A stretch of 35,259 nucleotides of DNA from a bacterium (GTDB taxonomy: Bacteria; UBA9089; CG2-30-40-21; SBAY01), in the NCBI GenBank assembly GCA_040757115.1, contig JBFLYA010000013.1:1-35259 (forward strand), written 5' to 3'. Below are positions 836 to 33,045 of this stretch, piece by piece. Every line of letters begins with the position of its first letter. The stretch's first letter is position 1. Both the position numbers and the translations under genes were made by a program. Under the pieces are notes generated by a model. It was not told the DNA's origin. It saw only the letters and a program-made list of their open reading frames with translations, and ran no database searches.

Positions 836-1024
836 GTAACTTATTCAGCCACAGATGAAACACTGAAAATTCGTAATCCGTGTCCGTTTTCCGTGTCCGT
901 AATTAGGCTGAAGGTTTTTCCTCCTTCTGCCCTCTGCTCTCTGCCTTCTGCCCTCTGCTCTCTGCCTTCTGCCCTCTGCTATTTATCCGTGCTAATCCGT
1001 GTTAATCAGTAGCTGAATAGTTAC
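836..1024. repeat. Interspersed element with GTAACT..TTCAGCC inverted ends (copy 1)
   Basis: The left end reads GTAACTTATTCAGCCAC; the right end, read inverted, is GTAACTATTCAGCTACTGAT. The interior shares long stretches with the element at 6601-7002: GAAACACTGAAAATTCGTAA, the GTGTCCGTTTTCCGTGTCCG block, AATTAGGCTGAAGG and TTATCCGTGCTAATCCGTG. It fills nearly the whole gap between gpsA and HU. No protein is encoded, and the only open frames are low-complexity. I see no clear target-site duplication. Confidence 0.8.
923..980. repeat. 21-bp minisatellite, about 2.8 copies, inside element copy 1
   Basis: The pyrimidine-rich unit (CCTTCTGCCCTCTGCTCTCT plus G) starts at 923, 944 and 965, the last copy being partial. 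The sister element at 6601-7002 has only one such unit at the same place, so the array has expanded or contracted between copies. Confidence 0.85.
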
Positions 1025-2721: not shown

Positions 2722-3008
2722 CCCTTTCCCCTGAAAATAGCGAATTAGTGAATTAGAGATTAGCGAATTAGTATAGTATCCACAGACTCGTATCCTCTGG
2801 TTTAGAACACATATTCCCCCTTAATAAAGGGGGTTAGGGGGTTGTCCTTCTCCCATTTTCATTGCCCTTTCCCCTGAAAATAGCGAATTAGTGAATTAGA
2901 GATTAGCGAATTAGTATAGTATCCACAGACTCGTATCCTCTGGTTTAGAACACATATTCCCCCTTAATAAAGGGGGTTAGGGGGTTGTCCTTCTCCCATT
3001 TTTCATTG
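2722..3008. repeat. Tandem duplication of a ~143-bp intergenic unit
   Basis: Two almost identical copies lie side by side: 2722-2864 and 2865-3008, the second with one extra T. The start of a third (GCCCTTTG) follows. Each unit carries an AT-rich GCGAATTAG-type segment and a hairpin CCCCCTTAATAAAGGGGG (2816-2833 and 2959-2976). Together they fill the 343-bp gap between the methyltransferase gene and plsY. No gene is visible. Near identity means the duplication is recent. On the minus strand the units contain TATACT, which could be a -10 element for plsY, but I see no matching -35. Confidence 0.9.
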
Positions 3009-5723: not shown

Positions 5724-5999
5724 GTAACTGTTCAGCCACTGATTAACACGGATTAGCACGGATAAAACGGAGAAGAAACGCCTATGAGTCTGCAACTCAC
5801 AAAGGATGATGAAAATAAAGGGGTTCGGGACTCGGGACTCGGGATTCTGGACTCGGGAATAAAAGAATTCCCTAATCCCAAAATCCGAGCCCCGAACCCC
5901 GATTTTCAGAGAAAAAAGAAAGATTCTGGACAAACATCTATCTTTTTAACTTTTTACTTTTCCAGTTTCATCCGTGTTCATCCGTGGCTGAAGAGTTAC
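5724..5999. repeat. Interspersed element with GTAACT..TTCAGCCAC inverted ends, filling the fliO-maf gap
   Basis: The left end is GTAACTGTTCAGCCACTGAT; the right end, inverted, is GTAACTCTTCAGCCACGGAT. The last base coincides with the final base of the fliO stop codon, and the first base abuts the maf Shine-Dalgarno sequence. The interior has short CGGGACTCGGGACTCGGGA-type repeats (about 5826-5860) and a partly complementary block (CCCGAACCCCG, about 5893) that could fold back. No protein is supported. The two ends share their termini with copies 836-1024 and 6601-7002, but the interior differs. Confidence 0.8.
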
Positions 6000-6586: not shown

Positions 6587-6646
6587 ATTAATTCACCTTG
6601 GTAACTATTCAGCCATAGATAGACACGGATGAAACACTGAAAATTC

Positions 6647-6885
6647 GTAACCGTTCAGGATATAGCCACAGAGTCACAGAGAACACAGAGGGAATATATA
6701 ACCACGAATGAACAAAATACAAAAAGATTTGTAGTGCGAGGCGTTAGCTTCGCTTCTGGCAAGCCAAAAGGCGAACTTAAAGGTTCGCACTACATTTATG
6801 GGATGTCAGAGGTTAATTCGTATCCATTTGTGGCTAATTTCCTTAATTCTCTGTGAACTCTGTGCCTCTGTGGCCGAACGCTTAC
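6647..6885. mobile_element. MITE-like non-autonomous element (copy A1), nested
   Basis: This is a 239-bp element with inverted ends GTAACCGTTCAGGATATAGC and, from the right, GTAAGCGTTCGGCCACAGAG. It is flanked by direct repeats AAAATTCG (6640-6647 and 6886-6893), a 7-8-bp target-site duplication. The interrupted host sequence occurs uninterrupted at about 860-880, so this insertion can be read directly. A second copy lies inverted at 32578-32819. It encodes no protein. Confidence 0.88.
6731..6793. repeat. Palindromic sub-element inside copy A1
   Basis: It begins GTAGTGCGAGG and ends TTCGCACTAC, so the ends are inverted copies, with a second inner palindrome around GCGAACTTAAAGGTTCGC. ATTT lies on both sides, a possible short target duplication. 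The equivalent at 32670-32732 has the cleaner inner palindromes GCGAGGCTAAAGCCTCGC and GCGAACCTTTAGGTTCGC. Confidence 0.7.
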
Positions 6886-7023
6886 AAAATTCGTGAATCG
6901 TGTCCGTTTTCCGTGTCCGTAATTAGGCTGAAGGTTTTTCCTCCTTCTGCCCTCTGCTATTTATCCGTGCTAATCCGTGTTAATCAGTGGCTGAATAGTT
7001 ACTCACTAATTTATATATCTACA

Positions 7024-7357: not shown

Positions 7358-10300
7358 TTATCGCATGACTGCCAATTTACCTGTTTTTGAACTTTTATCA
7401 TCTCTGATGAAATAAATATAGATTCCAGAGGCAACTCTCTCTCCCGCAGAATTATGACAATCCCATTCCACAATCCCATCTCCTCCTGAATCTTCCTCTT
7501 TCTCATAGACTAACTCACCCGCAATGTTGAATATCTTTAAACTGACTCTTGTATTTTGCGGCACGACAAAAAATACCTTCTTGCCTTTAGCCGGATTAGG
7601 ATAGCAGTAAGACTCAGCTACACTATCTAATGCCGACACTTCCTTAATTGGTCCACTACTAACTATCAGGCTATACTCACCTACATTGCCACTATAACTC
7701 TCTTTCTTGCGCATATCAATCAGATTATCTCTATCCTTTAAGTAGAGATAGTATTGGAGTGGCACAGTGGTAATATCCCAACTTATCTCTACTTTCCCTG
7801 GCTCACCTACCTGCTCTACCCTAAATTTCCATTCCTTGTTTGTTTCTACTTCACTGCGATAGTCAGAGCCATATTCACCTTCCGTCGGTGAAATGAAGTA
7901 ACACTTGAGATACGCAGGAGCGAATTCTCCTTCCTCTACTGGTAACATTGGGATTTCAGCAATATCATAGCCATCATCGTAGGTATCGCTTGCCTCAGGG
8001 CTAACGCCAGCAAAGTTAAATCTATCAGTCAGGCTACCCGCCTTAACGGATAGATGAATTGCCCAGCCATCTTTATGCTCAAGTGGGTTAAATTCATCCA
8101 CTTCACTCTCACTACGAACTTCATTATTCACAACCCACTCCTCTATCGGGCAGAAACTCTTCCCCTCTTGAGAGGGGTCAGGGGTGTGTTTCCCACCTAT
8201 CTCCTCTGCTGGAACGAGCATCTCGCAATCCACCGTCACCGGGATAAAATATCCTATCCAAGGACGAATTACCCCAGGATACGGCACCATCTTAAATCCC
8301 GTGCCATCATAATACCATAATGAACTCTTTATCCAGCCATTTACATAAGCCGTCACCGGGTCAACTACCTCTACTCCTTTGCGAAACTTTACCTGCTCAT
8401 TCAAAGCCACCGGGTAAAGATATGGGTGTCCAATATGATTCCACCTTTCAGGCAGACCGCCTTTTAATGGAATAACATAATAACCAGAAGGATTAGTCGA
8501 ACTCCCATAAACAATAATTTCATTATCTTTATCTGCGGTAATCCCATAGCCTATCTCCGGGGCAAAGTTTGGGACAGTTGAATCTGGCGGATTATGAATG
8601 ACCCAATTATTCCCATCAAAATAGACTAATCTGACATTTTGCTCAAAATTACCCCAATTCCACAACACACCTGCGGGGTCAGGATTCCCGGGATGAACAG
8701 GAACAGAGATGGATTTGTAAGTTGGATAGATAGCACCAATTTTACCGGAGCTAACTGTGCCATAAGTAATCGTCGTCCAGATAGTTGATAAAGTGTCATT
8801 CTTGCCATCAGTTGCCCAGATAGCGTAAAGTAACCCTCGCATAGTGACATTAGATGCCGCAATAGTACCTTTGTAAAGGTCATCTCCAATATTAACCATT
8901 TGAGTAAAAGAAATCGTTTTAGTCCCACCTATCTTCCAATAAAGAATTGCCTCATTAACCTTTACATTATCCGTTATAGTAGCTACAACCTCCATTGGCA
9001 ATCCAGCAGGTGCTGAAGGAATAAATTCATGCAAGATAATCGGTGGAATAGTATCTTCTGTTATCACAAAGTAAGAGATACAAACCTCATTGCTTTCTAT
9101 CCCTCTTACTAAAATAGTAGTCGTCCCTGCTGATTGTGTATCAACTGTAAAGGTTACGGAGAAACTACCAGCCTCCATTGAGATACAGGCAGCAATAGTC
9201 CCGGTTGTACCAAAATCTATCCGTATTTGCTCATTAGCTTTATATCCTATACCTTTTACTTCAACTTTACTTCCTACTGTACCACTTGTAGGAGATATCC
9301 AAATTATAGTTCCTTTAATACAAAAATAGACTTTAGTAGATAACCACTTACTTCTGGCAATAACTGTTTTACTCCCAGCAGATTGAGTATCCACAGTAAA
9401 AATAGTCTTAAAAGTACCATTAGCATAACTTGTAGTAAAAGTAATTGATGAAGTGAGTCCAAAATCTATTTCTATAAGTTCTGAAGCAAAATATCCAGTA
9501 CCTGATATAGTAACAATACTACCGATAGAGCTAGAGGTAGGATTTAAGATAATCTCAGGTAAAACAGTAAATATAGCTTTATCCACACAGCCTGCTTTAA
9601 TACTCTTAACAATAATCTTCTTTGGTCCAAATGGTTGTATATCAATACTAAAAGTAGTACAAAATGTACCTAAAGAACTTGCAGTGGTGATAGCAATACT
9701 TGAAGTGATACCAAAATCAATTACTATTGTATCTCTTGCCCCAAAACCATTACCTGCTATAGTTACAATACATCCTACTGTTCCAGAGGTAGGGGAAAGA
9801 TAAACAATATTGCCTGAGATAATAAACTCTGCTTTATCAATCTGGTCTTTATTTATAGCAGTAATAACAGTAGTAGTTCCTTGAGGCTGAGTATCCACAG
9901 TAAAGGTGACCTTAAAAGACCCATTAGATTCAGTATAAGTAGTAACAATACTTTTTGTCATCCCAAAATCAATTCGAAGTTCTGCATTTGAAGAATAACC
10001 ATCCCCTTGTAAAGTTACAACTATTCCAACACTACCAGAAGTAGGAAAGATAGAGTTGATTTTAGGTTTGATAAAGAAAATATCTGTCTTACTTACCATC
10101 GATGTAAGTCCAGTGACTATAATAGAAGTAGTGCCATAAGGTTGCAGATTGGTAGTAAACGAGACAGCAAAAATACCTGATTCATTACTTACAGCAGTAG
10201 CGATAGTCTGGATAGTACCAAAATCAATCCTTATAAACTCATTAGCACCATAGCCTATTCCTCTAATTGTAATCATAGTTCCAACTGTACCACTGACAGG

Positions 10301-13300
10301 ACTAGTCCAGAGCATACCATCTTTGATATAGAAACAAGTAGTGAGTATCAATCCAGACTCACTTCTAACTACAATTGTTTTCATACCATAGGCTTGAGTA
10401 TCCAGTCTAAAGAATGTAGTAAAACTACCATAAGTATCTGTCTTTGCATCAGAGATAGTTTTAGTAGTCCCAAAATCTATCCAGATTAATTCTGATGAAT
10501 AGTATCCATTGCCTTTTACAGTAACTATACTATCTATTTCACCAGAAGTAGGAGTAATTTTAATATTTGGTAAGATAAAGAAACTATTTATATCTTTATC
10601 TATATAATTAACTTCAATACTTCTAACTACTATTGTCTTATCTCCATAAGGTTGAAGATCAACCATAAACTGAGTACTAAATGTCCCAACATAACTTGCA
10701 GTAGTAAGTTCAATTGTCATCGAGGTACCAAAGTCAATACATATTATATCATTTGACCCAAAACCGTTACCTTCTATGTTTACAATACTTCCTACCGTAC
10801 CTAAAATAGGTGAAATATAAGTAATATTGCCTAAGATAATAAATGTAGTTTTATCAACTTCTTCTTTACCTACACCTAAAGTTACTATTGTAGTAGTCCC
10901 GTAGTTTTGAGTATCAATAGTAAATGTAGTTCGAAGTAAACCACTTGACATAACAGTAGTAGTTACAATAGTCAAAGTTTTCCCAAAGTCAATCCGTACC
11001 ATTTTACCTGAAGAATAACCTAGCCCTTTTATCTCTACAATTGTTCCAACTGAAGCAGAAGTAGGTGTAATTGCAATAATCTTTGGTTTAATAAAGAAAG
11101 AAATAGTAGCACTTGAGCCAGTCTTAAGCCCAATAGCACAAATAGATGTACTACCATAAGGTTGTGTATCAATTCTAAAGCTACTAATAAATCTACCCAT
11201 TATATCACTTTCTTCAGTAGCAATAGTTGAAGTTGCCCCAAAATCAATTTGTATAAGTTCACTCTTTCCAAATCCATTACCGAATATAGTAACTTCAGTG
11301 CCAATTGTACCCTTAGTAGGCGTAAGTAAGGTAATATTTGATTTAATAGTAAAGATACCTTTAGATTTTATATTTAACCAATCTTGGACAGCAACTATAG
11401 TAGTCTTACCGTAGGCTTGAGTATTAATAGTAAAGGTAGTAGTAAAAGTGCCATTAACAGAGGTAGAGGTAAGTTGGATACTCGGTATAGTACCAAATTC
11501 TATTCTTATACGCTGAAATGCTACATAGCCATTACCAGCCAATGTTACAATACTACCTATTGTACCTTCTTTAGGAGATATGAGAGTAATATTTGGTTGA
11601 GTTTGAAATCTACTTAATGCACTAATCTCTTCATTTTCATAGGCTATTATACTAATCTCAGCATAAGTCTTGGTATCAATTGTAAAGGTAGTACTAAAAC
11701 TTCCAGTTATATCAGTAGATGTAAGTTGAATAATAGCTGTAGTCCCAAACCTTATCTTTATACTCTGATATGTGCGGTAACCATTACCTGATAGGGTTAC
11801 TATTGTACCTATCGTACCCTTTTTAGGCGAGACTAATGTAATATTTGGCTGGATAAAGAAGTAAGATAAAACAGGATTTGATGAATTGGTACCAATAACT
11901 CTAATGGTAGTACTTCCATAAATCTGAGTATCTATGGTAAATGTAGCCTTAAAATATCCTACATTATTGGCTACTACATTAGTAATACTTTTAGTAGTAC
12001 CAAAATCAATTCTTATTAACTCACTACCAGCAAAACCATCACCTCTTATTGTAATAATACTTCCTATTGTGCCAGTGGTAGGTAAAATAGAAGATATTTT
12101 AGGTAAGACAAAGAAATAATTCATAAATACCTGGTTAGATATAGCTTGAATTGTAACAGTAGTGGTACCATAGCTTTGTGCAGTAGCGGTGAAATAGGTT
12201 AAAAAAGTACCTATCGAAGTTGAGCTACAAACAATAATTGTACTAATATTACCGAAATCTATCACTATTCTTTCTCTTGCTCCAAAGCCATTACCAGATA
12301 CAGTAATAGTCGTTCCTAATGTACCACTTGTAGGTGTTATTAAAGTAATATTTCCTGTGATAAAAATGCAACTAGAGGTACTTACATTAGATATTAAACC
12401 TTTAGCAACAATAGAAGTACTCCCATAAATTTGGGTATCAATAGTAAACATAGCAGTAAATGTACCTAAGATACTACTTGTAGTCAAGGTAATAGTAGAA
12501 CTTATCCCAAAATTAATTATAATTGGCTCAATTGTTTCATACCCTTCACCAGTTACAGTAATTTTAGCCCCTACTGAACCACTTACAGGCGATACTAAAG
12601 TAATCTTTGGTTCTAATGTTCCTATTGTGATGTAGAAATAAGCAATTGTTTTTACACCGCTACTATTCCCTCTTACGACAATAGTTTTTGTCCCTGCTGA
12701 TTGCGTATTTACAGTAAAATTAATACTAAAAGCCCCAACAGAATTGGAATAGGTAGTAGCAATACTTTTAGTCTGCCCAAAAGCTACTAATATCTCTTCA
12801 CTTACTCCATGACCATTGCCTCTAATTGTAACAATAGTACCTATCGAACCAAGAGTAGGTGTAAATTGGGTAATTTGTGGTAAAATAAAGAATTTCTCCA
12901 TAGCAGTCTTATTAGAACTTAATCCAATAGCTATAATAGATGTAGACCCGTAAGGTTGGATATCAACAGTTAAAATGAGTTCAAAATTACCTAAACTATT
13001 ACTTATAGTGGTAGCGATGCTAAGTGTAGTCCCAAAATCAACTCGTATGCCTTCTGATGCATTAAAATTTGCCCCCTCTATACTAACTATACTGCCTACA
13101 CTACCTCTAATAGGAGTAATCAAAGTTATCTTAGTATTTGCTATTTTTACTTTAACCTCTTCTACATTTTCATCTTCACCATCAGTAGCAATTAATTTAA
13201 GTGTGTATATACCATTTGGAATAGTAGTAGTATCCCATGGAGTTAAAGTACCGAGTTCAACAGGTGTATTTGATGTAATAATAGTATTCCAATCTGTGGA

Positions 13301-16300
13301 ACCTTTACTCTCTACATTTTCCTGTCTATATTTTAGGGAATAATAAGATAGTTTTGAAAGTATTACCTCTTTATTTACACTTACATTATCCTTTGCCAAA
13401 CCTATAATTTCAGCTTTACCTTTTAATTGTTGGTCTAAAATAGGAGAGATAATATTAGCCGCAGGAACATCTTTATCAGGATAGTCCATTATACAGATAT
13501 TTGAACTATCGTGTGTTCTTTCATAATTAAGCAATAATTTAGTTCCATCAGGAGATAGGCTAAAATATCCTATTGCATAAATTCCATCAGTATCAATATT
13601 AGTCAATTGAACTAACTCAGCTTCTTTTCCATTATTAACTACTTCCTCTATATTATTAATTATCCACGCGTCATACGGAAATCCAGCAGGAGGGATTCTT
13701 TCTTTCATTAACTCTTTAGATATATTATTTATTTTTGGAAAACGGGGTGGCCAGCCTGTAGTTGACAGAAATGCCAGTTTTTTACCATCTGGTGAGAAAC
13801 CAACAGGAATGTCAAATGCTGGATTATATGTAATTTGCAGTGTAGTAGGTGTAGCATTATTATAAATCACCTCCTGGATATTTGTAATTATGCATATTTC
13901 CCAATTACCAAAGTACCAGTCTAAATCTTCATTTTTTGCATAAGCTAACCATTTACCATCAGGCGACCAGCAGATACCGAGTTCCAATGCATCATCAGTA
14001 TTAGTTATCTGGTGTAATTCTGGATTAGCACCTTCATTAATTATCTCATCTATATTACTTGCTACCCAGACATCGTAATCAGAATAAAATGATAACATCT
14101 TATTATCCGGGGACCACCAACCTGGGTCATTCTCGAAACCACCTGCATCAATCTGAATTAACTCTGGTGAAGTTCCAGTTGCAATTACATCCTGGATATT
14201 AGTTACAAGCCAAATATCCCTCTCAGACTGAAATGCAAGATAACTTCCATCAGGAGAGAATCGAGGATTATAACAACTTTCTTTGCCTACATTTAGTTGT
14301 CTTTGATTATTTCCATCTGAGTCCATTATCCAAATACTTGAAGGCCATGTCCTAAAAGAATGAAATACTATTTGAGTCCCATCAGGTGAAAGACAACTGC
14401 TTAAGTCCATTGCTGAAGTAGTTAATTGATACATATTACTTAAAAAATTAATTTTAATAGTATCTATCTGATTTGAACTAAGCCCTATAGCAGTAATAGT
14501 AACAATTCCACTTACTGAATACCTTGCAGTAAAAACAGAAGAAAAAGTACCTGCTGGGTTACTTATAATAGTGGTAATGCTATGAATAGTTCCAAAATCA
14601 ATTCTTATCATCTCATTTTTACCAAAGCCATTACCTTCTATTGTAACAGGAGTGCCTACACATGGGTTATGAGGATAAACTTTAGTTAGCTGACCTATAA
14701 TACTAAATTTACCCTTAGCCACTAATCCAGAAGTTACCCCAGTAGCCATAATAGTTTTTGTGCCAAAATATTGGGTATCAATAGGAAAAGTAATAGAGAA
14801 AGTCCCTCCAGCACTACAAGTAACTATGTTAATAGTTTTAGTTGTACCAAAATCTATTCTAATTAATTCTGAGGCAACAAAATCCTTTCCTTCAACTGTT
14901 ATTACCGTACCTATCACACCACTATCTGGAGATATTAATGTTATTTTAGAATTTATTACTCTTATTACCACCTCTTCTACCCCTTCATCCTCTCCATCAG
15001 TAGTAGTAAGTTTAATAGTATAGAGTCCATTTTCTAAATCCGATACATCCCAGATAGCTAATGTACCATTATCTACCTGCGTATTGGATGTAACAATTGG
15101 TATCCAGTAATCTGAATTTGTACCCAGACTATACTCGCCAGTGTAAGATAATAATGTAGAAAGTACTGTATTATTAACACTTACATTATCTTTAGCCGTC
15201 CCTTTAATTATAGATTTACCTTTTAATACTTGATTTAGTATAGGTGAAATGATATTAGTTGCCGGGGCAGCTTTTTTATCATAAGGGTAATCCATCTCCC
15301 ATACATCCCAGTTACCAGCACGATAAGACCCAATAAGTATTTTTGTTCCATCTGGAGACCAACTACAGACACCTTCAGTAATCAAGGAAGGGATTAAATG
15401 CTCAAGTTCTAATTCTGCTCCTTTATAAATCACATCCTTTATATTAGTAATCACCCAGCAGTTCCATCTTCCAGGGTGATTATCTTTAGTTGAAGTAAAT
15501 GCATATTTTTCTCCATCTGGTGAAAACACACCATCACAATCATATTCTTTGAAATTTGTCAATTGTAATAACTCTGGCTGGGCATTTTTAAATAACACAT
15601 CCTGAATATTCTTTATCATCCATGCCTCTGGGTCCCCACTTCGAGTAGAATAAAATGATAATACTTTACCATCCGGTGACCAACCACCGGTTACATCCCA
15701 CTCAGGACCAACTAATATATCTTTTATAATAGGAGTAGTATCATGATTTATTACATCCTGGAGATTAATAACCGCCTTAATATCGGCAATAGGATATTCT
15801 ATATTCCAGCAACTAAATGTCATTACATTAGCATCAGGAGAAGAGACAGAAGCAAGTCCTTGTGTACCTACTACCCTAATTTCATCTGGAGGAGTGCCAT
15901 TAATTACCTCTTTAAAATTCTTTATTATATAGATACCCTCTTCAGGTCCTATTTGGTGAGTTTTCAAATACTTGCTATAAACCAACATCTCACCATCAGG
16001 TAAAAAGCCAAGAGGGGTACAATGATATTCCTCATCCTTGATTATCTCCTTTTTATTCTTACCATCTGCATCCATTATCCAGATAGTATATGAGTCATCT
16101 TCAGATTGCCTCGCATAAACTATCATTTTACCATCTGGTGAATAACCTGCTGGACTTTCATTACAGGTATCTGTGGTTAACTGCCTGAGATAAGGTGGAT
16201 TGATTACCTCCTCTACACATACTACTGGTTGATTAGTAATAGGTGTAAGAATTCCTCCTTCTCCCTCTGATTTTATAATAAAGGTATTGGTTCCTAAAGT

Positions 16301-19300
16301 AATAGTACCCTGTGGTGTACCTATATACATTATAGTAAATGTACCTTCAGCAAACATTTCCTCAATAGGTATTATAACGGTTGAACCTACAATACTACGG
16401 TATTTTAAAATCACTTCAGGTCCCGGAGTAACTGTTATCGCCCAATCAGGAGGTATAGTCCAGTTAGGTGGTATAGTTAAAGTAACCGTTCCATTACTTA
16501 AATCTGCCTCTGCTGTATAAGTGATATAAAATACCTCAGTAATATCTACTATTGTCCTATCTGGCTCTATCTTTGCGATCCCACTACCATCTGCCGGTTT
16601 CTCGATTATATTAAATATCCCAGTAGCATTATGCCCATATTTAACACTTGTAGCTGTAATATCAACTGGTCCTATAGCTTGTGTATCAACTATAAAAGTA
16701 GCTATAAATTTACCGTAAGCGTCTGATGTAGTAATTAAGATAGTTTTAGTAGTGCCAAAGTCTATCTGTATTGGTTCTGTTGGATAATACCCCTCCCCTG
16801 CTATCGTAACCTTAGTACCAACAAACCCTGATACTGGAGATACCAGCGTTATCCCTGGTCCAATTACAATAGGCCCATAGCTAATATTTGTAGGAGTGCC
16901 AATAGCCTCTATTCCGTATTCATCTTTTGCCTCAAAATAGTAGCTATAAACTCCACCAGATTGCAATTTAAAAACACACCAGTAGTTTTCACCTTCTATA
17001 TAATCCTTAGTTGGCTCAACACGCATTTCGGCTTCCCCGATAGTAGTAGTTCCTTTAAGAATGCATATCTTAGGATAATCAGAATAAGGGGGAGCATTAT
17101 CCTCATCTTTATATTTTACCTTGAAAGTAAAATATGTTTCGCGAGCAATGCCTTCATGTGGTTCTAATCCATCTTTTTCATAACCTGGGGTACCTCTCCA
17201 TTCTAATTCAGGTGCATGACTTATCTTTGGACCGGTTTGAAGCAAGATAAAAAAAGGACCTCTAGCTTCTTCACCCTTACTATCTTTAGCATAGAACTTA
17301 TATTGATAGATACCAACTTCATCTAAGACTATGGATATAGTAAATGTTGCACCTTTTAAATAATTCCCATTAACAAAGTTCATACTATAAGTCCCTTCTC
17401 CATAAGGTGCACCATCTTTATAGATAAGTAGTGCTGGATAACCTGAGGCAGGTGGGTCAATATTAATATCCCGGTATGCGGTACGAAAAGTAAATGTAGT
17501 CCCTGGAGTACCACGATTTGGTTCAAGGCCATCTATATAATCTTTTTCATCTGGCATAAATAACAAAGGTGCAAGGTTTGTCCCTTCTACTATCGGCCCA
17601 TCTTTAGAAACAGTTGGAGTCCCGGTACCAATAACCCCTTGTTCATTTTTAACCTCAAAGTAATAACTATATGCCTCACTGGCATAAGAAAATCGAACTT
17701 TGTTTGTAGAGTATACCACCCCTTCCGCATAATTATTACCATTTTCCTTGATTAATGTATATCCATCTGATATTAAAAATCCTCCTAGACAAACATAGAC
17801 CCTCGGATAACCCTCTGCTGGTGGGATATTATCAATATCAGTATATAATACTTTATAAGTAAAGTATCCTGTAGGTCCTACATCTGGCTCTACACCATCA
17901 GAAATATACCCTCCTTCACCTATCCAGGTTAATGTCGGAGAGCCTATTATTTTAGGTCCTGAGTGGCTTATAGTAGGACTACCTTTTGCCAGAATTTCAT
18001 CTATATTCTTTGAAACAAATTGATATGAATATAGCCCTGTCTCAAGATTAGCTATTTCAAAACTATACAGTTTACCATCCTTATAGTCAATATCTTGTGG
18101 ATTTACTTCTTCCATAATAAATGGGCTATTTTGTAATTCCCGGCCACCTCTAAAAATCCTTACCTCTGGATACCCTGTTAGTGGTGGTCTGTCAAGATAA
18201 TCAATATATTTTACTCGATAGGTATAAGTTCCAACTAATCGCTCTCCTTCTTCTGGGTGAAGTCCATCCTGTTCATAATTTTCCTCACCTGTCCAATCTA
18301 AAATCGGATATTCATAGGCTACAAATATAGTAAATTCAATAATCTGATTAGAACTAATACCTCTTACTCTAACGGTTTTTGAACCGATAGGTTGAGAATC
18401 AACAGTAAAGGGAATCTTGAAAACACCAGATAAATTTGTCACTCCAGTAGCAATAGTTTTAGTAGTACCAAAGTCTATTACTATCTCTTCTGAAACCTCA
18501 AACCCTACTCCTTCTATACTTACTATTGTTCCAATTGTACCAATTACAGGACTAATTAAGACAATACTCCCTTTAATACTAAAAGTGCCTCTTAGAGTTA
18601 CCTCAGAACTTAATCCTACGGCACAGATAGTCTTTATACCAAAACTCATGGTATCAATAGTAAATATTGAAGAAAAACTACCCGTAGCATCTGCGTATGA
18701 AGAGGTGATAGAAACAGTCGTTCCAAAGTCTATTCGGATTAATTCTGAGGCAAAGAAGTCCTCCCCATGGACAGTAACTACACTACCAACAGTACCAGAA
18801 TCAGGCAAAATAGTTATCGTTGGTGTACCAACCTTTAAAATGAGTGTTTGCGTAGATTTATTATACCCATTATCTATACCTGTAATTAATAACTCTTTTA
18901 TACCAGGATTTACCTCTGATACTATTGCTTGATAAGAATATATATCGTTACCTATATAACTCATTGCTTGACTACCAGCACCTCCAATTGGTGCAATATC
19001 AACCATAACCTCTACAATTCCATATTTATCTATTACCTTTGAGGATAAAGTTACCGTAGCTCCAACTGGGACAACTCCTGGTATAGCTTTTGGATTGGTT
19101 ATTTCAGGTGGAGTGTTATCAACTATTACTTTATCTCTTTGTTGAGGTGCATGATAATTCATTATATTCACAGCATCTATTTTATATGTATATTCATCAT
19201 CTTCTACGACTATATTACTATTATCTTTACCATCCCAGATTTCTGTATTAGTTCCTGAAGGTTTATTTACTTCTACTATTAAATCACGCACTAACTCATG

Positions 19301-20362
19301 ATTTGTATTATAAATCTTGATTGTTACCTTTGCCTCTTCTGGTAGATGATAGGTAATGGTAGTAGTGTCTTTTTGATTGTCATCATTAGGTGAGAAAATA
19401 TAAGGATAAGCACTGACATTTGTTATATAACTACTTATATCAAATATCTGTAAATTACTGTTATTTGAATCTACTACATATAATTTCTTTTGATGGATAG
19501 CCAATTTCTGTGCAGTATGGAATTGTCCTTTACCAGGTCCAAATCTACCAAATGTATGTAAAAATTGACCAGTATTAGAGAATTTTTGTATTCTAAAGTT
19601 ATACTTATCTGCTACCCAAATATTTCCATCCGAATCTACTGCTACATCTACCGGGTCTAAAAACTCACCTACCTGTCTTCCTTGTATACCGAATTTACGA
19701 ATAAAATTACCCTCTTTATCAAATATAGATACCCGTTCATTTCGCATATCGGCAACATAGATATTTCCTTCTTTATCTAATGTTAGACCATAAGGTTCAC
19801 TAAATTGAGTAGTGCCACTACCTTCACTGCCTAATATATTATCTCCATTAAATGAATTTACAGGATTAAAGGATGAATCAAACTTTAGTACTCGATCATT
19901 ACCAGAATCTAAGACATAAAGATTACTATCCTTATCCAATTCTATATCTCTTGGATAATAAAATTGTGGATTACCTGTAAAACACTTTACAAAAGAGATA
20001 CTATTTCCATCATCATACAGATGTTGTACACGCTCATTGCCAGTATCTACTACAAATATATTTCCTCTTTTATCAACTGCAATACCTTGTGGAGCCCTAA
20101 ACTGCCCCTCACCCGTTCCTTCTTGCCCAAAGGCATAAAGAAACTTACCGTTTTTATCATATTTCTTTATCTTATCATTACCGGTATCTGCAACATAAAT
20201 ACTGCCATCATAAGAAACCGCTACACCATAAGGGTATAAAAGTTCTGCCTCAGGTGGTCCTTTCCCCTTTATCCCTACACTACCGATAAAATTAGTACTG
20301 GCGAATACAGTAGTGGTCAAAAATATTAAACTAAATATTAAAAACAATCTCATTTTTACCAT
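7358..20362 (-). CDS. Giant secreted multidomain protein (4334 aa): NHL and PD40 propellers, 21 TIG-like repeats
   Basis: This is probably a cell-surface or appendage protein. The ATG at 20362 has a GAGGA ribosome site and starts a signal peptide (MVKMRLFLIFSLIFLTTTVFAS). Approximate layout: six NHL blades 31-307 (GNIYVADMRNERV type); FlgD-like Ig 314-404; Ig-like 411-510; TIG-like repeats 1-2 (505-680); four ~120-aa DGLxP..PPxxGYP repeats (684-1164); TIG 3; a PD40 propeller 1384-1694 with five SPDG-type blades; Ig-like; TIG 4-5; a second PD40 propeller 1977-2294; Ig-like; sixteen consecutive TIG-like repeats 2410-3764 of about 85 aa with core IRIDFGTT...GTFSTTFTIDTQPYG; an Ig-like domain; and a C-terminal domain (about 4247-4334) starting YCYPNPAKG and ending GKLAVMR, like FlgD-Ig or type IX secretion tails. 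Its function is unknown. Confidence 0.88.
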   Translation of the reverse strand: MVKMRLFLIFSLIFLTTTVFASTNFIGSVGIKGKGPPEAELLYPYGVAVSYDGSIYVADTGNDKIKKYDKNGKFLYAFGQEGTGEGQFRAPQGIAVDKRGNIFVVDTGNERVQHLYDDGNSISFVKCFTGNPQFYYPRDIELDKDSNLYVLDSGNDRVLKFDSSFNPVNSFNGDNILGSEGSGTTQFSEPYGLTLDKEGNIYVADMRNERVSIFDKEGNFIRKFGIQGRQVGEFLDPVDVAVDSDGNIWVADKYNFRIQKFSNTGQFLHTFGRFGPGKGQFHTAQKLAIHQKKLYVVDSNNSNLQIFDISSYITNVSAYPYIFSPNDDNQKDTTTITYHLPEEAKVTIKIYNTNHELVRDLIVEVNKPSGTNTEIWDGKDNSNIVVEDDEYTYKIDAVNIMNYHAPQQRDKVIVDNTPPEITNPKAIPGVVPVGATVTLSSKVIDKYGIVEVMVDIAPIGGAGSQAMSYIGNDIYSYQAIVSEVNPGIKELLITGIDNGYNKSTQTLILKVGTPTITILPDSGTVGSVVTVHGEDFFASELIRIDFGTTVSITSSYADATGSFSSIFTIDTMSFGIKTICAVGLSSEVTLRGTFSIKGSIVLISPVIGTIGTIVSIEGVGFEVSEEIVIDFGTTKTIATGVTNLSGVFKIPFTVDSQPIGSKTVRVRGISSNQIIEFTIFVAYEYPILDWTGEENYEQDGLHPEEGERLVGTYTYRVKYIDYLDRPPLTGYPEVRIFRGGRELQNSPFIMEEVNPQDIDYKDGKLYSFEIANLETGLYSYQFVSKNIDEILAKGSPTISHSGPKIIGSPTLTWIGEGGYISDGVEPDVGPTGYFTYKVLYTDIDNIPPAEGYPRVYVCLGGFLISDGYTLIKENGNNYAEGVVYSTNKVRFSYASEAYSYYFEVKNEQGVIGTGTPTVSKDGPIVEGTNLAPLLFMPDEKDYIDGLEPNRGTPGTTFTFRTAYRDINIDPPASGYPALLIYKDGAPYGEGTYSMNFVNGNYLKGATFTISIVLDEVGIYQYKFYAKDSKGEEARGPFFILLQTGPKISHAPELEWRGTPGYEKDGLEPHEGIARETYFTFKVKYKDEDNAPPYSDYPKICILKGTTTIGEAEMRVEPTKDYIEGENYWCVFKLQSGGVYSYYFEAKDEYGIEAIGTPTNISYGPIVIGPGITLVSPVSGFVGTKVTIAGEGYYPTEPIQIDFGTTKTILITTSDAYGKFIATFIVDTQAIGPVDITATSVKYGHNATGIFNIIEKPADGSGIAKIEPDRTIVDITEVFYITYTAEADLSNGTVTLTIPPNWTIPPDWAITVTPGPEVILKYRSIVGSTVIIPIEEMFAEGTFTIMYIGTPQGTITLGTNTFIIKSEGEGGILTPITNQPVVCVEEVINPPYLRQLTTDTCNESPAGYSPDGKMIVYARQSEDDSYTIWIMDADGKNKKEIIKDEEYHCTPLGFLPDGEMLVYSKYLKTHQIGPEEGIYIIKNFKEVINGTPPDEIRVVGTQGLASVSSPDANVMTFSCWNIEYPIADIKAVINLQDVINHDTTPIIKDILVGPEWDVTGGWSPDGKVLSFYSTRSGDPEAWMIKNIQDVLFKNAQPELLQLTNFKEYDCDGVFSPDGEKYAFTSTKDNHPGRWNCWVITNIKDVIYKGAELELEHLIPSLITEGVCSWSPDGTKILIGSYRAGNWDVWEMDYPYDKKAAPATNIISPILNQVLKGKSIIKGTAKDNVSVNNTVLSTLLSYTGEYSLGTNSDYWIPIVTSNTQVDNGTLAIWDVSDLENGLYTIKLTTTDGEDEGVEEVVIRVINSKITLISPDSGVIGTVITVEGKDFVASELIRIDFGTTKTINIVTCSAGGTFSITFPIDTQYFGTKTIMATGVTSGLVAKGKFSIIGQLTKVYPHNPCVGTPVTIEGNGFGKNEMIRIDFGTIHSITTIISNPAGTFSSVFTARYSVSGIVTITAIGLSSNQIDTIKINFLSNMYQLTTSAMDLSSCLSPDGTQIVFHSFRTWPSSIWIMDSDGNNQRQLNVGKESCYNPRFSPDGSYLAFQSERDIWLVTNIQDVIATGTSPELIQIDAGGFENDPGWWSPDNKMLSFYSDYDVWVASNIDEIINEGANPELHQITNTDDALELGICWSPDGKWLAYAKNEDLDWYFGNWEICIITNIQEVIYNNATPTTLQITYNPAFDIPVGFSPDGKKLAFLSTTGWPPRFPKINNISKELMKERIPPAGFPYDAWIINNIEEVVNNGKEAELVQLTNIDTDGIYAIGYFSLSPDGTKLLLNYERTHDSSNICIMDYPDKDVPAANIISPILDQQLKGKAEIIGLAKDNVSVNKEVILSKLSYYSLKYRQENVESKGSTDWNTIITSNTPVELGTLTPWDTTTIPNGIYTLKLIATDGEDENVEEVKVKIANTKITLITPIRGSVGSIVSIEGANFNASEGIRVDFGTTLSIATTISNSLGNFELILTVDIQPYGSTSIIAIGLSSNKTAMEKFFILPQITQFTPTLGSIGTIVTIRGNGHGVSEEILVAFGQTKSIATTYSNSVGAFSINFTVNTQSAGTKTIVVRGNSSGVKTIAYFYITIGTLEPKITLVSPVSGSVGAKITVTGEGYETIEPIIINFGISSTITLTTSSILGTFTAMFTIDTQIYGSTSIVAKGLISNVSTSSCIFITGNITLITPTSGTLGTTITVSGNGFGARERIVIDFGNISTIIVCSSTSIGTFLTYFTATAQSYGTTTVTIQAISNQVFMNYFFVLPKISSILPTTGTIGSIITIRGDGFAGSELIRIDFGTTKSITNVVANNVGYFKATFTIDTQIYGSTTIRVIGTNSSNPVLSYFFIQPNITLVSPKKGTIGTIVTLSGNGYRTYQSIKIRFGTTAIIQLTSTDITGSFSTTFTIDTKTYAEISIIAYENEEISALSRFQTQPNITLISPKEGTIGSIVTLAGNGYVAFQRIRIEFGTIPSIQLTSTSVNGTFTTTFTINTQAYGKTTIVAVQDWLNIKSKGIFTIKSNITLLTPTKGTIGTEVTIFGNGFGKSELIQIDFGATSTIATEESDIMGRFISSFRIDTQPYGSTSICAIGLKTGSSATISFFIKPKIIAITPTSASVGTIVEIKGLGYSSGKMVRIDFGKTLTIVTTTVMSSGLLRTTFTIDTQNYGTTTIVTLGVGKEEVDKTTFIILGNITYISPILGTVGSIVNIEGNGFGSNDIICIDFGTSMTIELTTASYVGTFSTQFMVDLQPYGDKTIVVRSIEVNYIDKDINSFFILPNIKITPTSGEIDSIVTVKGNGYYSSELIWIDFGTTKTISDAKTDTYGSFTTFFRLDTQAYGMKTIVVRSESGLILTTCFYIKDGMLWTSPVSGTVGTMITIRGIGYGANEFIRIDFGTIQTIATAVSNESGIFAVSFTTNLQPYGTTSIIVTGLTSMVSKTDIFFIKPKINSIFPTSGSVGIVVTLQGDGYSSNAELRIDFGMTKSIVTTYTESNGSFKVTFTVDTQPQGTTTVITAINKDQIDKAEFIISGNIVYLSPTSGTVGCIVTIAGNGFGARDTIVIDFGITSSIAITTASSLGTFCTTFSIDIQPFGPKKIIVKSIKAGCVDKAIFTVLPEIILNPTSSSIGSIVTISGTGYFASELIEIDFGLTSSITFTTSYANGTFKTIFTVDTQSAGSKTVIARSKWLSTKVYFCIKGTIIWISPTSGTVGSKVEVKGIGYKANEQIRIDFGTTGTIAACISMEAGSFSVTFTVDTQSAGTTTILVRGIESNEVCISYFVITEDTIPPIILHEFIPSAPAGLPMEVVATITDNVKVNEAILYWKIGGTKTISFTQMVNIGDDLYKGTIAASNVTMRGLLYAIWATDGKNDTLSTIWTTITYGTVSSGKIGAIYPTYKSISVPVHPGNPDPAGVLWNWGNFEQNVRLVYFDGNNWVIHNPPDSTVPNFAPEIGYGITADKDNEIIVYGSSTNPSGYYVIPLKGGLPERWNHIGHPYLYPVALNEQVKFRKGVEVVDPVTAYVNGWIKSSLWYYDGTGFKMVPYPGVIRPWIGYFIPVTVDCEMLVPAEEIGGKHTPDPSQEGKSFCPIEEWVVNNEVRSESEVDEFNPLEHKDGWAIHLSVKAGSLTDRFNFAGVSPEASDTYDDGYDIAEIPMLPVEEGEFAPAYLKCYFISPTEGEYGSDYRSEVETNKEWKFRVEQVGEPGKVEISWDITTVPLQYYLYLKDRDNLIDMRKKESYSGNVGEYSLIVSSGPIKEVSALDSVAESYCYPNPAKGKKVFFVVPQNTRVSLKIFNIAGELVYEKEEDSGGDGIVEWDCHNSAGERVASGIYIYFIRDDKSSKTGKLAVMR
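8162..8177. repeat. Perfect 16-bp palindrome inserted in the coding sequence
   Basis: CCCCTCTTGAGAGGGG lies inside the giant gene and, with flanking CAGGGGTGTG, encodes KHTPDPSQEGKSF. This proline- and charge-rich stretch looks foreign to the surrounding beta-rich domain. The DNA resembles the C/G hairpins found between genes at 2816-2833. Confidence 0.65.
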
Positions 20363-20383
20363 CTTTCGTTCCTCTTTATTTAG

Positions 20384-20455
20384 AGGACGCAGATTTTCGC
20401 AGATTATTAGGATTATTATTAGATATATCTTGTAAATCTTGTTCATCTGCGTCCT
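20384..20455. repeat. 72-bp element with 11-bp inverted ends in the leader of the giant gene
   Basis: The ends are AGGACGCAGAT (20384-20394) and ATCTGCGTCCT (20445-20455), and the interior is AT-rich with GATTATTAGGATTATTATTA. It lies 22 to 93 bases upstream of the start codon, so it would be in the 5' leader and could form a hairpin there. Confidence 0.75.
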
Positions 20456-20589: not shown

Positions 20590-23500
20590 TTATTTAATAA
20601 TCGCCAATTTACCGATACATTTATCTCCTTTAGTATTAGTGATACAATACAGATACACACCACTTGCTACCTTTCTACCAGCATCATTCCTCCCATCCCA
20701 TTCATAGGTATAATCAATACCTTCCTTCTTAAATACCAACTCACCTGATATAGTAAATATTCTTAGAGTTACATCTTGAGTAAGATTTTTAAATATAATT
20801 ACATCTGTTTTACTTTTACTCGGTATAAATGGATTAGGATAGACACAGACCTTGTTTAAATCCTGCATCATTGGTACATCTAATGGCTGAAAATCTGTGT
20901 ATTTGTAAGAGCCAGAGGTAGTATATACAAACTTTGAGTAATCAACTTCCATCCAATCACTGTCATCCTTTATTAATATGAATAGAGGGAATAAGTTATA
21001 TGGTCCATTAATACCTTTACTATATATATCTTTTCCATCAATTTTAAGTGCTATCGTTTGGGTGCCGGTAGATAAAAACTTATGCATAATATCTATATAT
21101 TTAATCACATTAAAAGGAGGTTCTTTGAAATCTTCACATAAAAGTCCTTTTATCATAAACTCTCCTGGTTTCCTAACCTTTACATTTATATTTATCACTA
21201 AATAGTTATGAAGTCCATCACCATCTGTATCTAATCCGTAATCATTAGTTGGGGTGCCACTAAAGGTTACTTCTGGTATTTGAAATTGAGTATAGGAGTA
21301 TGTGCCTGTAATATAGGGATAAGGAAGTGTATCAATCTCCACTAAACCCATAGGAATAGGTACTTTTTCTTCCTCTGCTTCTTCCTCAACTTCTTCTTCA
21401 ACCTCTTCTTTCTCAATAGTCTCAATACATAATCTTACATTATCCACCTTATATGGTCCATCATAACCTGTATTATAAATTTTTCTACCATTAAACTTAA
21501 ATTTGATAGTATATGTACCAGGTTGTAATGATATATTGGTATAACCACTGGTTATAGGACTATTCCCTGAATTATCCCATAACTCTCCACTTATTCTAAA
21601 CTCCCCTGCATTTACAACATTTATCTCATGATTTACTACTAAATAATTATAAAACTCATCATCATCTGTATCCAATGCGTAGTCAGTAAAACTACCGGTA
21701 AAACTTGCATCAGGCAGTTGAAATTGTGTATGAGAATATGTACCAGTAGTATAAGCATCTTGAATGTCATCAAGACAGGTATTACCTTGATATAAATCCA
21801 GATTACGCAATTTATACGGTCCCTCATAGCCTTTATTATAAATCTCTCTTCCATCAAACTTAAGTTCTACTGTATGGGTTCCAGATAATAATGAGATATT
21901 GGTATGTACATAGGTTATGGAATTATTCCCCAAGTTGTCATATAAATTTCCTCTTATCCTGAAATCTCCTGCTTCTATAACATTTACTTCTACATTTATT
22001 ACTAAATAATTGTATCTTTCATCATCATCCGTATCTAAACAATAATCAGTAAAACTACCTGTAAAACTTGCCTCTGGTGGTTGGAATTGGGTATAGGAGT
22101 ATGTACCAGTAGTAAATGCATCTTGAATGTCATCAAGACAGGTATTACCTTGATATAAATCCAGATTACGCAATTTATACGGTCCCTCGTAACCTTTATT
22201 ATAAATTTCTCTACCATCAAACTTAAGTTCTACTGTATGTGTTCCAGATAATAATGAGATATTGGTATGTACATAGGTTATGGAATTATTCCCTGAGTTG
22301 TCATATAACTTTCCTCTTATCCTGAAATCTCCTGCTTCTATAACATTTACTTCTACATTTACTACCAGGTAATTATACCACTCATCATTATCTGTATCCA
22401 GGCCATAATCAGTAAAACTACCAGTAAAACTTGCATCAGGCAGTTGAAATTGTCTATGAGAATATATGCCAGTAGTATAAGCATCTTGAATATCATCAAG
22501 ACAGGTATTACCTTGATATAAATCCAGATTACGCAATTTATACGGTCCCTCGTAACCTTTATTATAAATCTCTCTACCATCAAACTTAAGTTCTACTGTA
22601 TGGGTTCCAGATAATAATGAGATATTGGTATGTACATAGGTTATGGAATGATTCCCTGAGTTGTCATATAAATTTCCTCTTATCCTGAAATCTCCTGCTT
22701 CTATAGCATTTACCTCTGCATTTATTACCAAATAATTATAATATTCATCATCATCTGTATCCAGAGCATAATCAGTAAAACTACCAGTAAAACTTGCCTG
22801 TGGTGGTTGAAATTGGGTATAGGAATATGTGCCAGTATAACCAGATATATATTCAAGGTGGAAATTACTTTGCCATAAATCCAGACGCAATCCATACGGT
22901 CCATCGTAACCTCTATTATAAATCTCTCTCCCATCAAACTTAAGTTCTACTGTATGTGTTCCAGATAATAATGAGATATTGGTATATACATAGGTTATGG
23001 AATGATTCCCTGAGTTGTCATATAAATTTCCTCTTATCCTGAAATCTCCTGCTTCTATAACATTTACTTCTACCTTTACTACCAGGTAATTATACCACTC
23101 ATCATTATCTGTATCCAGGCCATAATCAGTAAAACTACCAGTAAAACTTGCCTCTGGGATTTGAAATTGAGTATAAGAATATGTACCTGTGGTGTAAGCA
23201 TTAGAGATATAGTCAAGTTGAGCACCTGTATTTTCATCTCTTAGGTAGAGATTCTGTAATTTATATGGTCCATCATAGCTTTTATCATAAATCCGTCTGC
23301 CATCAAATTTAAGCTCTATTGTATGTGTTCCTGGTGATAATGATATATTGGTAAACCCATAGGTTATGGAATTACTCCCTGAATTATCATATAACCATTT
23401 TTCTATTCTAAATTCCCCTGCTTTTATAACATTTACTTCCGCATTTATTACTAAATAATTATATCGCTCATCATCATCTGTATCCAGAGCATAATCAGTA

Positions 23501-26612: not shown

Positions 26613-29600
26613 TTAATGATCTTCTAACCATTGAGCTTCACTATAGTTGTATGGTGCATTAGGATATGTCCATGACTTCAGAAGTATATTTAACCTCTGT
26701 TTTATTTGAATTGCATACCTTATCGATTCTTCTGACATTAAATCATCTCTTACAATATACATCCAAGCATAACTCCTTAGTATTTGACCTACTCCTAATT
26801 CTCCTCCGTTATATCCAGCTAATGCCTTAGCTAACAAATCAATATTGTCATCTCCACTGACTTGACAGTAATTAAAAGCAGTATTTAAGCAGGGCACATT
26901 CATATACTGAGCCCCTGCTAATAAATTTCCATCGGGTGCATATAAGTTAGTATTTGCTGGTATATTGCCTAAATTATTATATGCCAAACTATTAAATGGT
27001 TGGATTTGTAAGAATCCTAATGCACCTCTAAAAGATATAGTAATTCTTCTATTCTGCCAGTGAGTGCCACTTGATTCCTGCTCTATCATGCCTCGCAAAA
27101 GTTCCTCTTCATCTGTACTATCAGGTGGAATATCTGTAATAATTCCTTCTGGTAGATTAGTAATATCAGCAGATGCATCCTCTCGCCATTGTGGAAACCG
27201 AGCATCATTTTGTGTAATTGTATTTTCTGCAAAGACATCTAACGCATTTTGAAAGTTATTACGATGATTAAGTAAATTTGTAATCGTATCTGCATTAACC
27301 TGGCTACCAGGTGGATTTAACTGATTTTCTGATAACCAGGTACCTTGATTTGCTCTCTTAAATCTAATCACCTCTTCTCTTGTATGAGGACCATACATAC
27401 CATCTATTTGATTTCCAATAAAATCATAGCATATAAACCTGAGTAAATTCTGCATCCTTTCTACATCATACCCATTTATATTCTCCTGTAAAACTCTACT
27501 TCCACTTCTTCTAACACCTGGATTAGAATACCCATCTGTCGGGTTAGTATCTACTACCGTACTTGTTGCTGGTTCTATACCAGGATACTCTGCTCGAATT
27601 ATTATATCACCTAATTGCCGAGTAGTCCTTATATGTAAGTGTCCTGTTGCTATTCCATTTTGAGTTAGCCCACTGGTTGTTCGTCTTCCTCTAAAATCTC
27701 CATAAGTTTGTCCTTGAACTACTCTAAATGTAACCAAATGATTATTGTCATCTGTATCTATTGGTTCCCCTGCATCTACTATACCATCATTATCAGTATC
27801 TATAATAATCTCTGCCCTTACCTCTGCTTCATGCTCTTCATCTGCTAATAGATATGAGTTTTCATCTGCCTGACCATAATGCCATGGAGTTTGTACCTGA
27901 TTATCTATATCAATTGGTCTTATGATTAATTTTATCAATCTATCCTGTGGTGGTGTAGTGTGACTTACATTTATTGCTAAATTTAGCCTGTCTTCTAAAG
28001 TCTCTGGCTGTTTTACAGGCTCACCCGGTATTACTGTCATCTTTAGATCATAACATCCTTCAGTTGCATACTCATCACTATCCTGTCTATGCCCATCCCA
28101 CCTAAAAAATGGGTTAAAATCTGGAGTTGTCGGCTCTGGCTTGGAGATAATTTCTTTAAAGACTAATTTTTGAGTCTGGGAATTATATATCTCTATTATA
28201 ACACCTCCACAACTATCCTGTAAATAATAAATTATATCTGAATAAGTTGTGGGAACTACATTATAAGGGCTTATATTATTCGGTTCAACCTTTAAAATCT
28301 TGATAAATGGCATCTTTGTGTTAGCCTGTATTTTATATATTGGCTCCACTGGATTTTCATTACCATTTGCATCCTTAGCAGTAATGATGTAATAATAAGT
28401 AGTTCCTGACTCTAATCCAGTATCATTGTAATAATTATGATTTCTATCAGTATTCCAGAATATATTTGTGTAAGGACCATTTGGAGTTTGACTTTTATAA
28501 AGATTGTATCTATCAAAATCAGCCTCAGTACTTCTACTCCAAATCAAATCTATCTCCGTCTCCTTCTCAGTAATATCAGTAACAGTCGGTCTTGCAGGAG
28601 GGGTGGTATCTGGTGGTGGTTCTTCGGTATATGGTGTAGCATAAGATTCATTTGAGGCATCAGTTTCTATGCCAAACTCACTTTCTGCCTTGACATAGTA
28701 ATAGTAAGTAGTATCTGCTATTACATCCGTATCATCATAATAGGTATCTTTGACCAATGATGCAATTTTAGTATAATTTCCTCCTGCTGGCTTGCGATAT
28801 ACATTGTATCCTGCTACTGTATCTATACTCCCTATCCAGCCTAAATAAACTATATTCTCTCCTCCAATAGCAGATAATCCCCACGGTGGCTCTGGTTTAG
28901 TTAAATCCTTTGGTATCTCAGAGTTTATTTGAGATAATTCACTCTCATTACCTGAGGTATCTACTGCGGTTATACCATAATAATATCTTTGTCCTGAAGT
29001 TAATTGATATGCAGTAAATGAGGTATTAGTAATATTATATGCTAACCCATCATATTTATAATAATAACTCTCCTTAGTTGGCGTACCTCTATCTCCTTCA
29101 TAAATATTGTAGTAACTCACATCATTATCAGGTGGTGCGGTCCATGATAGATCAAGTTCACTGCCATTACCTGGATCATTAATCTGTAAATTAGTCGGAG
29201 GAGCAGGAGGGGTGATATCTCCTGGTGATAAAGGAGCAGCAGAAACTACTGAAGAGGCTTCTGATTCATTCCAATAATTATCTATGGCAGTGACTATAAA
29301 ATAATATGGTTTTAATTCAGTTAAGTTACTAAATGTATAATCAGTTATATTCTTATCAACAAAAATACAATAATCAAAATTATAAGGAGTAATATATTCA
29401 TCATCCTTTATATGCACACAATAGTAATTTAAATCTAATTCAGAATTGGGATTCCATGATACTGTAATTTGTAGTACATCTGGTGCAGCCTGTAGTCCGG
29501 TAGGCTTTGATGGAGGTGTAGCATCTAATACTACTACCTGTATAGTATCTGTACCTGGATTACCCGCACCATCCTCTACATATAACTTAGTGGTATATGT

Positions 29601-32448: not shown

Positions 32449-32899
32449 CGGTGGTGTCTTAATCTAGCATAAAGGTTGAAATAGTGTAAGAAAAGGAGAT
32501 ATGGGGATTATGGAGATTAGGAGATAAATTCATTCTAAAATTTTGCAAAGGACTATGAATAATCTCCATCTCTCCCTGTAACCATTCAGCCACAGAGGCA
32601 CAGAGTTCACAGAGAATTAGAGAAATTAGCCACAAATGGACACGAATTAACCTGTGACATTCGATAAATGTAATGCGAACCTTTAGGTTCGCTTTCCTGC
32701 TTGCCAGAAGCGAGGCTAAAGCCTCGCACTACAAATCTTTTTATTATTCGTGTTCATTCGTGGTTATATATTCGCTCTGTGTTCTCTGTGACTCTGTGGC
32801 TATATCCCTGAACGGTTACCTCTCCCTTTTCTCCTTATCCCCTTTTGGACACCAAATTTGCATAGATTTCACTATTAGAGTTATTTTCAGACACCACCG
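32449..32899. repeat. Possible outer element with 11-bp inverted ends in the fliY-TPR gap
   Basis: CGGTGGTGTCT (32449-32459) and AGACACCACCG (32889-32899) are perfect inverted copies around 430 bp that contain the MITE-like element A2. The interior near each end shares AGTGTAAGAAA/GGAGAT-type purine runs, which recur at 35168-35200. Being an element is inference from the ends alone. Confidence 0.45.
32578..32819. mobile_element. MITE-like non-autonomous element (copy A2), inverted to A1
   Basis: This 242-bp element has ends GTAACCATTCAGCCACAGAG and, inverted from the right, GTAACCGTTCAGGGATATAG. It is flanked by perfect 8-bp direct repeats CTCTCCCT (32570-32577 and 32820-32827). Its reverse complement matches copy A1 (6647-6885) along its whole length. 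The inner palindromic sub-element lies at 32670-32732. It encodes no protein, so a transposase must act in trans. Confidence 0.9.
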
Positions 32900-33045
32900 A
32901 AAATTCGTAATCTGTGTCCGTAATTAGGCTGAAGGTTGATGGTTGAAGATTCAGGTATAGTGCCTCGTGTCTCCTCTCCTTCTCCCTTTCTCCGTTTCCC
33001 CGTTTCTCCCTTTCTCATCTGTCCTCTGATGACTGCTTGCTTATT
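32900..33045. other. Repeat remnant and polypyrimidine tract after fliY
   Basis: It opens with AATTCGTAATCTGTGTCCGT and AATTAGGCTGAAGG, blocks shared with elements 836-1024 and 6601-7002, but lacks their GTAAC ends. A polypyrimidine tract (32970-33018, CTCCTTCTCCCTTTCTCCG and similar) follows up to the fliY stop. No gene and no clear terminator hairpin are visible. Confidence 0.6.

What the first reader, a model, noticed from the sequence alone, without database searches (positions are those of the whole stretch)
6640..6893. MITE-like element caught inserted in another repeat, with target duplication
Copy A1 (6647-6885) is flanked by AAAATTCG on both sides, and the interrupted sequence exists whole in the element at 836-1024 (CACTGAAAATTCGTAATCC). 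Copy A2 (32578-32819) is flanked by perfect CTCTCCCT. Two independent insertions with 7-8-bp duplications show a mobilised non-autonomous family. A palindromic 63-bp piece inside it with ATTT on both sides suggests a third nesting level.
Basis: seen in the sequence. Interest (0 to 1): 0.65.

Follow-up and report, generated by a model that had tools for sequence, protein, structure and literature searches.

The report
IS66-type mini-transposons nested in other mini-transposons
Short gene-less jumping DNA pieces, carrying the ends and leaving the 8-base scars of a known bacterial jumping gene type (IS66), have copied themselves through this bacterial genome and into each other; the basic kind is known, but this IS66-based, nested version seems undescribed.

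Summary
Window 6647-6885 (A1) is a 239-bp GTAACC...CTTAC element inserted in a second repeat (6601-7002), duplicating AAAATTC; copy A2 (32578-32819) has a perfect CTCTCCCT duplication. The genome holds 18 BLAST-defined full-length copies: 9 have perfect 8-bp duplications, 2 have 7/8, and A1 a 7-bp version (chance about 0.7% per copy). The requested full-length partner was found: a decayed 1.56-kb IS66-family (ISBst12-like, single-ORF) element in the same genome with the same GTAACCGTTCAGG ends. Intact relatives in a distant complete genome have GTAACYATTCAGG ends and perfect 8-bp duplications.

Best reading: several IS66-mobilised MITE families, nesting into one another. A+C composites moved on as units with their own outer 8-bp duplications, and another MITE (E) hit exactly the same site in another B copy as A1.

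The 63-bp GTAG...CTAC palindrome never occurs outside A (30/30 loci); in another family of the phylum a different GTAG palindrome likewise sits only inside IS66-ended MITEs (14/14, each with a >=7/8 duplication). It is a structural core, not a visible separate insertion. The parent class and nesting appear new; the kind is known.

The parts
6647..6885 (+). MITE copy A1 (family A), 239 bp, nearly palindromic overall
   Evidence: sequence; 18 full-length genomic copies; consensus of 20 copies, mean pairwise identity 93%, folds into one long hairpin
6647..6658 (+). left terminal inverted repeat GTAACCGTTCAG; the next ~8 bases (GATATAGC) resemble the IS66 left end GTAACCGTTCAGGTATAGCT
6874..6885 (-). 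right terminal inverted repeat (reverse complement GTAAGCGTTCGG)
6639..6646 (.). target duplication, left copy GAAAATTC (AAAATTC matched on the right)
   Evidence: full 8-bp form at the same site in L047
6886..6892 (.). target duplication, right copy AAAATTC (one base short)
6731..6793 (.). 63-bp GTAG...CTAC palindromic core, resembling a head-to-head dimer of GTAG-tagged REPs
   Evidence: found only inside A copies
6601..7002 (.). host repeat B3 (family B, GTAACTATTCAG...CTGAATAGTTAC), split by A1; own flanks TCACCTTG/TCACTAAT no longer a clear duplication
836..1024 (.). uninterrupted B copy (B1) giving the empty site for A1
5724..5999 (.). third B-type element (B2), GTAACTGTTCAG...CTGAAGAGTTAC
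32578..32819 (-). MITE copy A2 (family A), 242 bp
32570..32577 (.). A2 target duplication, left copy CTCTCCCT
32820..32827 (.). A2 target duplication, right copy CTCTCCCT

Best explanation
A is a non-autonomous MITE moved by an IS66-family transposase of the single-ORF ISBst12-like group. The transposase would bind the ~12-bp ends (GTAACYRTTCAG), cut out or copy the 240-bp element and insert it at a staggered 8-bp cut, which repair turns into the direct repeats. Shown: ends, 8-bp duplications, copy number, an empty site, and an IS66 element with the same ends in the same genome. Inferred: that this transposase acts in trans on A, and the cut-and-join steps. A belongs to a set of IS66-ended MITE families (A, B, D, E and a REP-core type) that insert into each other; composites can move on as single units. 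A1 in B3 is one such event.
For:: of 18 full-length A copies 9 have 8/8 and 2 have 7/8 flank matches, plus A1 with 7 bp; chance 0.0066 per pair, shuffled pairings never above 4 against 17 of 27.: ~200 copies of the end in the genome, reversed-pattern control 0. L061 893-2455 is an IS66-family element (PF03050, DUF6444, broken by two stops) with ends GTAACCGTTCAGG; intact 483-494 aa IS66 elements in complete genome G065 with ends GTAACYATTCAGG and perfect 8-bp duplications at four sites. L203 joins ~33 bp of the IS66 left end (91%) to B-type inner sequence with an 8-bp duplication; A's left end nearly continues the IS66 left end. (PMC12898284): ISDge4, an ISBst12-group IS66, has end GTAACTGCTCAGCA, an 8-bp duplication and one ORF. 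A+C composites with separate outer 8-bp duplications (L024, L025, L029).
Against: The only full-length IS66 with matching ends in the own genome is broken and lacks a target duplication; the sister genome G001, with as many MITEs, shows only weak or partial IS66 hits, and G008 none over threshold apart from a tiny fragment. The active transposase is therefore not seen (lost, or missing from fragmented assemblies). Beyond the ends the sequence shared with the IS is short (about 13-20 bp, 33 bp in L203). 6 of 18 full-length A copies lack a recognisable duplication. Transposition was not observed.
Confidence: 0.86

Rival explanations
1. A is a MITE of another DDE transposase family that also makes 8-bp duplications; the match to IS66 ends is coincidental.
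For: The active autonomous partner is not seen intact in this genome; several IS families make 8-bp duplications (own knowledge).
Against: The 13-bp end is identical to that of an IS66 in the same genome, IS66 elements in other genomes carry variants of the same end with 8-bp duplications, and L203 carries more IS66 end sequence.
Confidence: 0.08
2. The copies spread as passive repeats by recombination or gene conversion, like REP or ERIC-type sequences, and not by transposition.
For: B copies mostly lack target duplications (4 of about 40); inner parts contain simple words such as CACAGAG that recur in other phyla.
Against: Clean empty site, perfect 8-bp duplications at many unrelated sites, and composites with new duplications.
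Confidence: 0.03
3. The GTAG palindrome is a real REP dimer that a RAYT (Y1 transposase) once inserted into an ancestor of A, so A is a two-enzyme chimera. (This can be true together with the best explanation.)
For: GTAG tag and head-to-head dimer form match GTAG REPs (PMC3733652); Y1 transposase genes exist in the genome; ATTT on both sides; a different GTAG palindrome sits in the MITEs of G008.
Against: No free copy of the palindrome in its genome (30/30 loci in A; no hit in 59 relatives outside the genus); no A copy without it that could be an empty site; no REP pattern hit within the fetched flanks of the Y1 genes.
Confidence: 0.3

Closest known systems
IS66 family, ISBst12 group (e.g. ISDge4, PMC12898284)
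   Same: GTAAC...TCAG-type ends, 8-bp duplication, single transposase ORF with PF03050 (L061, L086)
   Different: A and B carry no transposase and share only the terminal ~13-33 bp with the IS
IS-derived bacterial MITEs such as MITECca01 (IS982, PMC9769881), MITEPye1 (IS1182, PMC11578231), MITEPsy1 (PMC3189936)
   Same: About 100-250 bp, no genes, parental-IS ends, target duplications, many copies, hairpin-forming, insertion into other mobile elements
   Different: Parent is IS66; several families share one end type and nest in each other; nested composites re-transposed; GTAG palindrome core; patchy presence across families of a phylum
GTAG-tagged REP dimers / REPINs (PMC3733652)
   Same: Palindromes starting GTAG, paired head-to-head with a conserved spacer
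   Different: Here found only as the core of an IS66-ended MITE, never free; no flanking RAYT seen

Membership tests
MITE (non-autonomous IS derivative) | Short (<~600 bp), no transposase gene | tested here: met
   239-242 bp; no ORF of 90 aa or more overlaps 6647-6885
MITE (non-autonomous IS derivative) | Terminal inverted repeats | tested here: met
   GTAACCGTTCAG at both ends
MITE (non-autonomous IS derivative) | Constant-length target duplications at independent sites | tested here: met
   11 of 18 full-length copies >=7/8 at 8 bp; chance 0.66%
MITE (non-autonomous IS derivative) | Parent IS with the same ends | tested here: met
   L061 893-2455, one decayed copy; no intact copy seen in this genome
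MITE (non-autonomous IS derivative) | Observed transposition in trans | not testable with these tools
   needs an experiment
IS66 family / ISBst12 group (the proposed parent, L061 and G065 relatives) | PF03050 transposase in a single ORF | tested here: met
   the L061 copy is broken by two stops, L086 intact
IS66 family / ISBst12 group (the proposed parent, L061 and G065 relatives) | GTAA ends and 8-bp duplication | tested here: met
   L082, L083, L084, L086: 8/8; L061 has the ends but no duplication
GTAG REP / REPIN (for the 63-bp core) | GTAG-tagged palindromes in an inverted pair | tested here: met
   GTAGTGCGA...TCGC pairs at 6731-6793
GTAG REP / REPIN (for the 63-bp core) | Dispersed on its own in the genome | tested here: not met
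   30/30 fetched loci lie in A copies
GTAG REP / REPIN (for the 63-bp core) | Linked to a RAYT gene | tested here: inconclusive
   Y1_Tnp genes exist but no REP pattern hit in their fetched flanks; RAYT subtype not tested

The most novel reading that the evidence does not exclude
IS66-ended MITEs with a GTAG-palindrome core are a recurrent hybrid architecture: different lineages of this phylum paired the same IS66 ends and inner CAC-RGA words with different REP-dimer cores. The core would be functional (for example an RNA or DNA hairpin favouring transposition or protecting transcripts), and the family would move horizontally between bacterial families.
Probability: 0.2. Interest if true: 0.65.

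Novelty: new variant of a known kind. Interest (0 to 1): 0.42.

Why it matters
A 2024 review of prokaryotic MITEs in the held library does not mention IS66, and the searches found no paper describing IS66-derived MITEs, so this adds a parent family. It gives a clean natural record of nested bacterial MITEs, including composites that moved as one unit, and a way to order bursts by nesting. It also gives testable material for IS66/ISBst12 transposition, a mechanism that PMC12898284 calls insufficiently characterised. The patchy spread (about 200 ends in two species of one genus and in one genome of another family, none in the two examined genomes of the sister genus) suggests transfer between families or repeated loss.

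Tried and rejected
The palindrome as a separately mobile third level was tested by seeking free copies in own, sister and related genomes: none found. A was sought outside the genus: only inner words matched, though only the six best candidates per genome were scored, so absence is soft; the core-pattern search agrees. A strict pattern over all genome contigs found one locus that is not an A copy. Literature searches for the inner words found nothing. Searches for IS66 plus MITE terms found no IS66-derived MITE. Rfam and tRNA scans of the window were empty. The organism could not be named: the only named record, bacterium isolate Yes70-08 (JASEGY010000045.1), carries the same sequence as the G013 locus L093, not the window's genome.

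Full report
Observation. A1 is at 6647-6885 as stated, with AAAATTC on both sides. The second copy A2 is at 32578-32819 on the minus strand with perfect CTCTCCCT flanks. The intact B copy at 836-1024 shows the empty site; joining the A1 flanks and aligning them to it leaves exactly one extra AAAATTC. Two of 28 such B sites seen are filled.

Genome-wide test. The window lies in a 4.3-Mb draft genome of 462 contigs. BLAST gives 18 full-length A copies with both flanks plus about a dozen interrupted ones. With ends set by BLAST, not by the flanks, 9 have 8/8 matching flanking bases, 2 have 7/8 and A1 has the 7-bp version. In a wider sample in which the partner end was partly chosen by duplication (a mild bias), 17 of 27 A elements reach 7/8; shuffled pairings average 0.3 and never exceed 4 in 10,000. 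The end pattern occurs about 200 times, against zero for its reversed control. Copies are on average 93% alike and the consensus folds as one long hairpin.

Parent. PF03050 finds an IS66-family element at L061 893-2455 with ends GTAACCGTTCAGG on both sides and a single transposase frame broken by two stops. A complete genome from another phylum (G065) has six related copies; four have perfect 8-bp duplications with ends GTAACYATTCAGG, and the intact ORF has PF03050, zf-IS66 and DUF6444. The published ISBst12-group ISDge4 shows the same signature (PMC12898284). L203 joins about 33 bp of the IS66 left end to a B-type interior and has an 8-bp duplication. That the IS66 transposase moves A is inference, strong but untested; no intact copy is seen in the own or sister genome, possibly because of assembly breaks or loss.

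Nesting. Four A copies carry a ~170-bp element C (CRACCTGTGCGGTTA ends) at one A position with an inner 8-bp AAAAGATT duplication; three of these composites have their own, different outer 8-bp duplications. The composite therefore transposed as a unit. In L025 the inner C is inverted. L020 has another IS66-ended element (D) in A with an AAAGATTT duplication; L026 and L030 have an IS630-like element and its miniature (by appearance; not family-tested); L033 has B in E; L120 has B in an A remnant.

Palindrome. The GTAG...CTAC core has REP-dimer features (PMC3733652) but occurs only within A copies (30/30) of this genus. In G008, from another family of the phylum, a different GTAG palindrome (GTAGGGACA..., over 220 pattern hits) sits within IS66-ended elements; 14 distinct ones were checked and all have >=7/8 duplications; one further hit lies at a contig end beside a single MITE end. 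A decayed relative of that element exists in the own genome (L212, 80% over its length). So the palindrome is a core part, and the B family and the G008 family are related.

Distribution. End counts: own genome 203, sister species 184, G008 181; the two examined genomes of the sister genus in the same family 0, and others in order and phylum 0-9. This is patchy, and fits horizontal transfer or repeated loss.

Verdict. A known kind of element (MITE) with a parent family (IS66/ISBst12) for which no MITE description was found in the held literature, and unusually rich nesting.

Noticed in passing
L088-L105 (e.g. L098, L099, L101), and A arms in the window: Inner words such as CCACAGAGNCACAGAGNNCACAGAG and CACGAATGAACACGAAT recur in intergenic DNA of genomes from several phyla, often as inverted pairs and often without IS66 ends. 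No paper was found; their origin is unexplained.
   Followed up: partly
L105 (G007), L076 (G005): In another genus of the order both a MITE (L105) and an IS66 element (L076) carry GTAACTACTCA ends, suggesting that MITE ends track the local IS66 ends.
   Followed up: partly
L024, L025, L028, L029: Family C (CRACCTGTGCGGTTA ends, 8-bp duplication) is a further MITE of unknown parent; a similar ACCTGTGCAGTTAA motif lies near window 7099.
   Followed up: no
window 2722-3007: A 138-bp stretch is tandemly repeated with 100% identity at 143-bp spacing, between the 197-aa and 305-aa ORFs.
   Followed up: no
window 32899-32936: A fragment of B (GAAAATTCGTAATCTGTGTCCGTAATTAGGCTGAAGG) lies just beyond A2.
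   Followed up: no
window 7358-20446, 20590-25434 and 26613-31538: Three giant ORFs (4362, 1614 and 1641 aa), the first two highly repetitive (repeat periods of about 250 bp and 363 bp), probably exported proteins (by appearance; not searched).
   Followed up: no
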